In this document: positions 1,179-2,303 of the stretch, piece after piece
How positions within the stretch are numbered: the stretch's first letter is position 1
Layout of the letters: every line of letters begins with the position of its first letter
NCBI GenBank assembly: GCA_002388905.1
Contig: DGNJ01000080.1
Span: forward strand, 2,968-9,238
Source: Cellvibrionales bacterium UBA4495
Lineage (GTDB): Bacteria; Pseudomonadota; Gammaproteobacteria; Pseudomonadales; Porticoccaceae
Reading direction: 5' to 3'
DNA length: 6,271 nt
Translations under genes and position numbers: made by a program
Notes under the pieces: generated by a model
What the model saw: the letters and a program-made list of their open reading frames with translations, nothing else
Databases searched by the model: none
What the model was told of the DNA's origin: nothing

Positions 1179-2303
1179 TTGAAGTTTAGCTTAGTACAAA
1201 AGGACATTGAGAGCAAGGCCAGGGCAGGGGAAATCACCACCGACCATGGTACCATACAGACTCCTATTTTTATGCCCGTGGGTACAGTGGCCTCTGTAAA
1301 AGGGGTACACCAGCGTGAGTTGAAGGAGGAAATTGACCCGGATGTCATTTTGGGAAATACCTACCATTTGTACCTGCGCCCCAAAACCACAATTTTGGAA
1401 GAGGCCGGAGGCCTCCACAAGTTTATGGGTTGGGACCGAAAGATATTGACGGATAGTGGGGGGTATCAGGTGTATTCACTTTCTGATAATCGCAAAATAA
1501 AGGAAGAGGGAGTTAAGTTCAAGTCCCATATTGATGGATCGCTCCATGTGTTCACACCAGAGAATGTTATGGAAATCCAACGGACCATTGGGGCGGATAT
1601 CATCATGGCTTTTGATGAATGTACGCCCTATCCGTGTGACTATCAGTACGCGAAACGCTCCATGCACCTTACCCACCGCTGGCTGGAACGCTGTATCGCC
1701 CATTTGGAAAAAGTACCCCCCAGGTACGGTTACAGCCAATCATTCTTTCCCATTGTCCAGGGGTCTACTTTTAAGGACCTCAGGAAACAATCGGCCGAGT
1801 ACATTGCCGGGGCCGGGGCTGAGGGGAATGCCATCGGCGGCCTGTCTGTAGGGGAGCCGGCAGAGGAAATGTATGCCATGGCAGAACTGGTATGCGATAT
1901 CCTCCCACAGGACAAGCCCCGCTACCTGATGGGGGTGGGGAAACCCGGGGATATACTCGAGGCGGTGCGGCGCGGTATCGATATGTTCGACTGCGTGCTC
2001 CCTACCCGCAATGCCCGCAATGGTCACCTGTTCACCCGCACGGGGGTAATCAAGATCCGCAACGCGGTCCATCGCCACGACATCAGTCCGCTGGACGCCA
2101 GTTGCGACTGTTACACCTGCAGCCATTTCAGTCGAGCCTATCTGCACCACCTGGACCGCTGCAACGAGATCCTGGGCTCTCAGCTCAATACCATCCACAA
2201 CCTGCGCTATTTTCAGCGCCTGATGGCGGACATCCGCGAGGCGGTCGATGCCGGCGGGCTGGACGATTTTGCCGCGGATTTCTACGCGGCCCTGGAAAGC
2301 TGA
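1179..2303 (+). CDS. tgt: Queuine/preQ1 tRNA-guanine transglycosylase; sequence is a cross-phylum hybrid
   Basis: Tgt exchanges guanine-34 in the anticodon of GUN tRNAs for the queuosine precursor preQ1. The frame is open for 374 residues, the normal family length. Key residues by alignment with the E. coli enzyme: Asp92 in LTDSGG, Asp146 in FDECTP, Gln194 in IVQGS, GGLSVGEP (220-227), nucleophile Asp271 in GIDMFDC, and the zinc ligands Cys309, Cys311, Cys314 (CDCYTC) with His340 (TIHNL). The start is TTG at 1179: an in-frame TGA at 1173-1175 blocks extension, and the ATG at 1172 is in another frame and closes after five codons. There is no Shine-Dalgarno sequence. Residues 1 to ~245 follow the Bacteroidota type (KGVHQRELKEE, FTPENVMEIQRTIGAD, AGAEGNAIGGLSVGEPAEEMYAM). 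Residues ~257-374 follow the gammaproteobacterial type (VRRGIDMFDC, RNGHLFT, SRAYLHHLDRCNEILG, NTIHNLRYFQRLM). GC rises sharply at the same point. The annotation as Tgt is safe for both halves; the joined gene probably does not exist in one organism. Confidence 0.9.
   Translation: MKFSLVQKDIESKARAGEITTDHGTIQTPIFMPVGTVASVKGVHQRELKEEIDPDVILGNTYHLYLRPKTTILEEAGGLHKFMGWDRKILTDSGGYQVYSLSDNRKIKEEGVKFKSHIDGSLHVFTPENVMEIQRTIGADIIMAFDECTPYPCDYQYAKRSMHLTHRWLERCIAHLEKVPPRYGYSQSFFPIVQGSTFKDLRKQSAEYIAGAGAEGNAIGGLSVGEPAEEMYAMAELVCDILPQDKPRYLMGVGKPGDILEAVRRGIDMFDCVLPTRNARNGHLFTRTGVIKIRNAVHRHDISPLDASCDCYTCSHFSRAYLHHLDRCNEILGSQLNTIHNLRYFQRLMADIREAVDAGGLDDFAADFYAALES
1914..1946. other. Probable junction between Bacteroidota and gammaproteobacterial sequence
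   Basis: The stretch encodes KPRYLMGVGKP (Tgt residues 246-256), which is nearly invariant across phyla. Upstream, the protein, promoters, start-site style and neighbour genes are of Bacteroidota type. Downstream, the rest of tgt and all the genes are gammaproteobacterial. Sampled 60-base blocks go from 47% GC (1321-1380 and 1501-1560) and 53% (1861-1920) to 67% (1921-1980). A short identical stretch in two tgt genes is where an assembler could cross from one genome to another. The exact base cannot be fixed from one sequence. Confidence 0.75.

What the first reader, a model, noticed from the sequence alone, without database searches (positions are those of the whole stretch)
1179..2303. tgt is a Bacteroidota/Gammaproteobacteria hybrid with an intact reading frame
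Residues 1 to ~245 are of flavobacterial type; residues ~257 to 374 are of gammaproteobacterial type, including the CDCYTC zinc site. From memory, many flavobacterial Tgt proteins lack those cysteines, which would make the switch sharper; this needs checking. The change falls in a conserved stretch and coincides with changes of GC, promoter type and neighbouring genes. Because both flanks change, an assembly chimera is far more likely than recombination of the gene itself. If real, it would be a cross-phylum gene fusion in a core tRNA-modification enzyme.
Basis: partly seen in the sequence, partly recalled or inferred. Interest (0 to 1): 0.75.

Follow-up and report, generated by a model that had tools for sequence, protein, structure and literature searches.

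The report
False join of three bacterial genomes
This apparent cross-phylum gene fusion is likely an assembly error: its first part matches an Allomuricauda genome almost base for base, its last part encodes exactly the end of a gammaproteobacterial Tgt enzyme, and intact genes of both kinds exist elsewhere.

Summary
Window 2-1621 (and all of scaffold C84:1-4588) is 99.8% or more identical to an Allomuricauda-group genome with its own intact flavobacterial Tgt. Window 1622 to about 1945 resembles another flavobacterium, not identified (at most 90% protein identity). From codon 246 (1914) the protein is identical over 129 residues to P0121, a gammaproteobacterial Tgt on a separate contig. The hybrid itself has one member on one contig. 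The bin lacks queA, which lies just upstream of tgt in the relative G007. No scaffold gap lies at a junction, so the joins are inside a contig. The zinc remark held: 0 of 101 complete Bacteroidota tgt loci examined have CxCxxC, against 29 of 29 gammaproteobacterial ones. Three other database proteins look like similar hybrids. Raw reads were not available.

The parts
1..1621 (.). Allomuricauda segment: N-terminal transketolase half (176-1057, minus strand) and tgt codons 1-147
   Evidence: 1619 of 1620 bases identical to G103:C133 over 2-1621; C84:1-4588 is 99.80% identical over 4591 columns, 6 mismatches, 1 gap
1179..2303 (+). Hybrid tgt ORF, 374 aa, TTG start; a patchwork of at least two, likely three, sources
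1584..1621 (+). Junction 1 zone: Allomuricauda to another flavobacterium (exact point not resolved)
   Evidence: Identity to G103 ends at 1621; another Allomuricauda-group locus shares a 38-nt run with the window here (L130, 1584-1621); bin 1599-1628 is the commonest site of the longest shared run of L123 with other Bacteroidota tgt, 27 of 103
1622..1945 (+). Second flavobacterial segment, source organism not found (best 90% protein identity, 78% DNA identity); its last 32 bases overlap junction 2
1914..1946 (+). Junction 2 zone: flavobacterium to gammaproteobacterium (residues KPRYLMGVGKP)
   Evidence: P0121 identity starts at codon 246 = 1914; Flavobacteriaceae matches stop at 1939-1946; the window shares runs of 24, 23 and 23 nt with gammaproteobacterial loci L029, L020 and L003 here, and of 19 and 17 nt with Bacteroidota loci L103 and L095
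1947..2303 (+). Gammaproteobacterial tgt 3' part with the zinc motif C309-x-C311-x2-C314 and H340
2332..2772 (-). mscL (gammaproteobacterial flank)
   Evidence: same order tgt-mscL-secD in G007
3214..5067 (+). secD (gammaproteobacterial flank)
5076..5990 (+). secF (gammaproteobacterial flank)

Best explanation
The hybrid tgt is likely a contig-level assembly chimera in which DNA of an Allomuricauda, a likely second flavobacterium and a gammaproteobacterium was joined at short conserved words of the tgt gene. Shown: the Allomuricauda identity, the exact gammaproteobacterial protein end, the intact genes of both kinds, and the absence of scaffold gaps at the joins. Inferred: that a short-read assembler walked from one genome's copy of tgt into another's at words identical in both (about 1584-1621 and 1914-1946). 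The frame would stay open because homologous codons were joined to homologous codons. The gammaproteobacterial bin would have kept the contig because most of its scaffold is gammaproteobacterial. No hybrid enzyme is expected to exist in a cell.
For: (1) C84:1-4588 is 99.80% identical to G103:C133, where tgt is intact at 376 aa and followed by LptF/LptG and AccA genes; its Tgt equals P0006, named Allomuricauda sp.. (2) P0121 is identical over residues 246-374 and gammaproteobacterial throughout. (3) P0005, a full flavobacterial Tgt on a 47,658-base contig, is identical to the hybrid over residues 1-155. (4) The hybrid is 1 member on 1 contig, next best identity 82%. (5) There is a second switch near 1621. 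(6) The bin has one tgt match, no queA (controls rang in 9 of 14) and no match to a 6,000-base Allomuricauda query outside C84:3331-4990. (7) C84 has N runs only at 2966-2967, 9239-9240 and 14390-14467, none at a junction. (8) The junction zones are places where related tgt genes share identical DNA runs. (9) P0002-P0004 look like further such hybrids, on contigs of 1,857-3,143 bases.
Against: The reading frame is intact and the joins keep it. Junction 2 is not the commonest site of shared runs between Bacteroidota and gammaproteobacterial tgt: 333 of 3016 pairs have their longest run overlapping it, and its two 30-base bins (168 and 172 pairs) come after bins 1959-1988 (576), 1269-1298 (477), 1599-1628 (452) and 1989-2018 (325). 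The source of 1622-1945 was not found, so word sharing could not be measured between the true parents. The blastn match of C84 to G007 reaches back to window 1820, through the conserved GGLSVGEP stretch, although the protein departs from P0121 before residue 246. The GUNC paper's passage calls misassemblies relatively rare. No reads were examined.
Confidence: 0.89

Rival explanations
1. The chimera was made in the tube: template switching during whole-genome amplification or library PCR joined tgt molecules of different species, and the assembler then faithfully assembled the false molecule.
For: Switches at conserved homologous stretches also fit template switching.
Against: Two switches, with a left part of 4.6 kb and a right part of about 22 kb, would need a dominant false molecule; such molecules are usually rare (recalled). 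Nothing here tells amplification from assembly directly.
Confidence: 0.08
2. A real cross-phylum recombination replaced the 5' part of tgt and its upstream DNA in this gammaproteobacterium with Allomuricauda DNA.
For: Open, in-frame ORF above the Tgt family cut-off; very recent transfer could explain 99.8% DNA identity.
Against: A gammaproteobacterial Tgt with the identical C-terminal 129 residues and its own gammaproteobacterial front exists; the hybrid was found once; the differing middle piece needs two events; the flavobacterial stretch runs to the scaffold end without returning. Among the 57 relatives searched beside G000, 54 have a match: none above 61% identity, save one fragment at 65% over residues 267-369, the gammaproteobacterial part (G033).
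Confidence: 0.02
3. Scaffolding or binning error only, with correct contigs.
For: The scaffold has N gaps and the bin has 3.4% estimated contamination.
Against: Both junctions are inside the gap-free 6,271-base stretch, and the gap at C84:2966-2967 joins Allomuricauda to Allomuricauda.
Confidence: 0.01

Closest known systems
Chimeric (misassembled) contigs in metagenome assemblies, as in the GUNC paper (PMC8201837) and an assembler benchmark (PMC11261854); only passages were seen,
   Same: Fragments of several genomes joined in one contig; the benchmark reports chimeric contigs per genome of 22.15 for megahit and 2.63 for SPAdes on Illumina data.
   Different: Here the joins fall inside one homologous core gene and keep its reading frame, so the gene call alone does not expose them.
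Bacterial tRNA-guanine transglycosylase Tgt (TIGR00430)
   Same: The ORF scores 521.4 bits over residues 11-372.
   Different: No single organism shown here encodes this sequence; the N- and C-terminal parts belong to two phyla.

Membership tests
Chimeric metagenome contig | Segments match different genomes at near identity | tested here: met
   Left: 99.80% DNA identity to Allomuricauda-group G103. Right: 129 of 129 residues identical to P0121. For the middle segment it is not met: no near-identical source was found.
Chimeric metagenome contig | Parental genes exist intact | tested here: met
   G103/P0006, P0005 and P0121 are full-length ordinary Tgt proteins. The middle parent was not found.
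Chimeric metagenome contig | Join not reproduced in independent assemblies | tested here: met
   1 member sequence on 1 contig in a search of about 5.8 billion proteins, of which the 8000 candidates sharing most words were scored and 120 listed.
Chimeric metagenome contig | Joins at sequence words shared by the parents | tested here: inconclusive
   Shared runs occur at both zones among relatives, but the DNA of the second flavobacterium and of the P0121 contig was not available.
Chimeric metagenome contig | Read depth or pairing breaks at the join | not testable with these tools
   No reads are held.
Functional bacterial Tgt | Family score above the curated cut-off | tested here: met
   TIGR00430 521.4 against 306.75 bits.
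Functional bacterial Tgt | Zinc site CxCxxC...H | tested here: met
   C309, C311, C314 and H340, all from the gammaproteobacterial segment; 0 of 101 complete Bacteroidota tgt loci have CxCxxC. That these residues bind zinc is recalled.
Functional bacterial Tgt | Encoded by one organism | tested here: not met
   Segments trace to different phyla.

The most novel reading that the evidence does not exclude
A recombinant gammaproteobacterial chromosome really exists in which cross-phylum events rebuilt tgt from two flavobacterial pieces and a gammaproteobacterial zinc-binding end, with loss of queA.
Probability: 0.02. Interest if true: 0.75.

Novelty: not a real feature. Interest (0 to 1): 0.08.

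Why it matters
The scaffold places flavobacterial genes (transketolase, an S4-domain protein, an FKBP-type protein, an outer-membrane barrel protein) and a false enzyme in a gammaproteobacterial genome estimated at 92.8% complete and 3.4% contaminated. If P0002-P0004 arose the same way, conserved genes such as tgt can yield intact-looking false fusions that gene-level checks miss. For the biology of Tgt, the absence of the zinc cysteines in all 101 complete Bacteroidota loci sampled is the more interesting lead.

Tried and rejected
Ordinary single-lineage Tgt: rejected by segment trees and sliding identities. Scaffold-gap join: rejected, as the N runs are elsewhere. Real transfer: judged unlikely because an intact gammaproteobacterial gene with the same end exists and the left stretch never returns to gammaproteobacterial sequence. 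Source of 1622-1945: not found by the protein search (best 90%) nor in 397 genomes drawn evenly from a larger family group (315 with a match, best 78% DNA identity). A second flavobacterial copy or the missing gammaproteobacterial tgt 5' part in the bin: not found. (queA of G007 against the bin) was empty but has no positive control of its own, with controls, is the evidence used. Literature on zinc loss in Tgt: 0 papers for one term set; 88 for another, of which 12 were listed and none opened. One search (chimeric contigs) listed 12 of 42 papers; two were opened for passages only. The structure search with P0006 found 55 solved sequences, the best at 365.9 bits being a queuine tRNA-ribosyltransferase that has the CxCxxC stretch; whether any of the 55 lacks it was not checked.

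Script notes: loaded some proteins from the gapped alignment file A1. That made the P0006 lines meaningless and shifted the P0020 numbering. One search repeated the P0005, P0006, P0121 and protein zinc counts on ungapped sequences, with the same counts (1 of 161 and 119 of 119). One search recounted the loci with CxCxxC alone and with a following histidine, with the same result. One search compared some loci on the wrong strand and was replaced.

Full report
What was checked. The window is G000:C84:2968-9238, a stretch of a 27,171-base scaffold in a 3.38 Mb, 132-contig genome estimated 92.8% complete and 3.4% contaminated. It is bounded by two-base N gaps at C84:2966-2967 and 9239-9240 and holds none inside. 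The tgt ORF at 1179-2303 is open, 374 aa, and scores 521.4 bits with TIGR00430. It is the only tgt match in the genome.

The left part is Allomuricauda. Among 71 genomes of the genus group of G058 (the genome of L033, an Allomuricauda record), 68 have a match, and G103 matches window 2-1945 at 96%. A base-by-base comparison shows one mismatch (1442) in positions 2-1621, then 240 of 324 identical over 1622-1945. The identity extends through the scaffold gap: C84:1-4588 is 99.80% identical over 4591 columns, with 6 mismatches and one gap. That stretch encodes an S4-domain protein, an FKBP-type protein, an outer-membrane beta-barrel protein and the two transketolase halves. In G103 the same neighbourhood continues with an intact 376-aa Tgt, then LptF/LptG and AccA genes. 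The G103 Tgt equals P0006, named Allomuricauda sp.. P0005, another full-length flavobacterial Tgt, is identical to the hybrid over residues 1-155.

The middle part is likely a different flavobacterium. Residues 148-245 match P0005 at only 87 of 98 positions. The best protein match for residues 152-256 is 90%, and the best DNA match in a sample of 397 genomes of the family group is 78%. Third-position GC is 0.65 here, against 0.54 in the first part, 0.78 in the last, and 0.47 in the same codons of G103. The organism was not identified, so 'second flavobacterium' is an inference from similarity.

The right part is gammaproteobacterial. P0121, a 365-aa Tgt on a 3,094-base JGI contig, is identical from residue 246 to the end (129 residues) and is gammaproteobacterial in its own N-terminal part. 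The next full-length protein over residues 255-374 has 85% identity (P0123), so P0121 is probably the same species; this is an inference. In the relative G007, whose Tgt is P0131 (Gammaproteobacteria bacterium BRH_c0), the order is queA-tgt-mscL-secD, and the window shows tgt-mscL-secD-secF. The rest of the scaffold to the right keeps a GC of 0.55-0.65 per 1000 bases. queA was not found in G000 (controls rang in 9 of 14 genomes), as would be expected if the true upstream contig was not binned.

Position of the joins. Matches of 10 Flavobacteriaceae genomes to a query running to 1990 all stop at 1939-1946. In one search, where the query ended at 1960, matches of 67 of the 68 genomes with a match stop at 1939-1946 and one (G088) at 1960. 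The protein leaves P0121 before residue 246. So junction 2 lies at 1914-1946. A blastn match of C84 to G007 reaches back to window 1820 through a conserved stretch, which shows how similar the two phyla are there. Junction 1 lies at or shortly before 1621. In 103 comparisons of the Allomuricauda-group tgt L123 with other Bacteroidota tgt, bin 1599-1628 is the commonest place for the longest shared run (27 of 103; next 14 at 1989-2018). In 3016 Bacteroidota-by-gammaproteobacteria pairs, 333 have their longest shared run overlapping 1914-1945. That interval is 32 of about 1122 bases, so this is more than its share, but it is well short of the main peak at 1959-2018 (901 of 3016, by midpoint) and of the bins at 1269-1298 (477) and 1599-1628 (452).

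Other hybrids. Three further proteins (P0002, P0003, P0004; contigs of 3,143, 1,857 and 2,109 bases) are flavobacterial up to about MFDCVMPTRNARNG and gammaproteobacterial after it, which is the main shared-run peak. P0020 (3,643 bases) has a flavobacterial front and a CxCxxC end that the tree places, on a long branch, with the gammaproteobacterial set. P0122 repeats the same conserved stretch twice. Their flanks were not available, so calling them artefacts is an inference.

Zinc site. CxCxxC is in 0 of 77 complete Bacteroidota tgt from the 80 genome-contig loci (3 were not counted as complete), 0 of 12 Allomuricauda-group loci (the best 12 of 68 matches) and 0 of 12 further family loci (the best 12 of 315), all 101 proteins distinct, and in 29 of 29 gammaproteobacterial loci. 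Among the listed proteins it is in 1 of 161 on the flavobacterial side (P0020; P0001-P0004 left out) and 119 of 119 on the gammaproteobacterial side. These sets were chosen by similarity to the hybrid, so they are not a census of the phylum.

Verdict. Misassembly that yields chimeric contigs is a described error source in metagenome-assembled genomes (PMC8201837 and PMC11261854, passages seen; the GUNC passage calls misassemblies relatively rare, mis-binning being commoner). The remaining doubt is mainly whether the false molecule arose in the assembler or in the library; raw reads would decide.

Noticed in passing
L033-L112, L123-L146 (Bacteroidota tgt loci); P0005 residues about 306-345: Bacteroidota Tgt proteins sampled lack the zinc-site cysteines CxCxxC (0 of 101 complete loci) that all 29 gammaproteobacterial loci have, while an HNL stretch with the likely zinc histidine is kept in 98 of 101.
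   Followed up: partly
P0002, P0003, P0004, P0020 (proteins): Four other Tgt proteins on contigs of 1.9-3.6 kb have flavobacterial fronts and CxCxxC ends; three switch at about MFDCVMPTRNARNG, where Bacteroidota and gammaproteobacterial tgt most often share their longest identical DNA run.
   Followed up: partly
P0122 (270 aa): A Tgt-like protein in which a conserved stretch beginning IPADKPRYLMGVG is present twice in tandem, possibly another assembly error at the same place.
   Followed up: no
L074 and L082 (Maribacter and Winogradskyella MAG contigs): Both contigs end inside tgt (318 and 288 codons read), L082 close to the conserved NARNG stretch, as if assemblies break there.
   Followed up: no
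C84:2966-2967 and 9239-9240 (just outside both window ends): Two-base N gaps interrupt the C-terminal transketolase gene and the reading frame that runs off the window's right end at 6016-6271.
   Followed up: partly
window 1153-1160: TATATTTG, a match to TAnnTTTG (recalled as the Bacteroidota -7 element), lies 18 bases before the tgt start codon and is the only + strand match in the window.
   Followed up: no
G000:C89:44719-44964: The yajC match of this genome lies on another contig, not between tgt and secD; the relative G007 has mscL between tgt and secD as the window does.
   Followed up: partly
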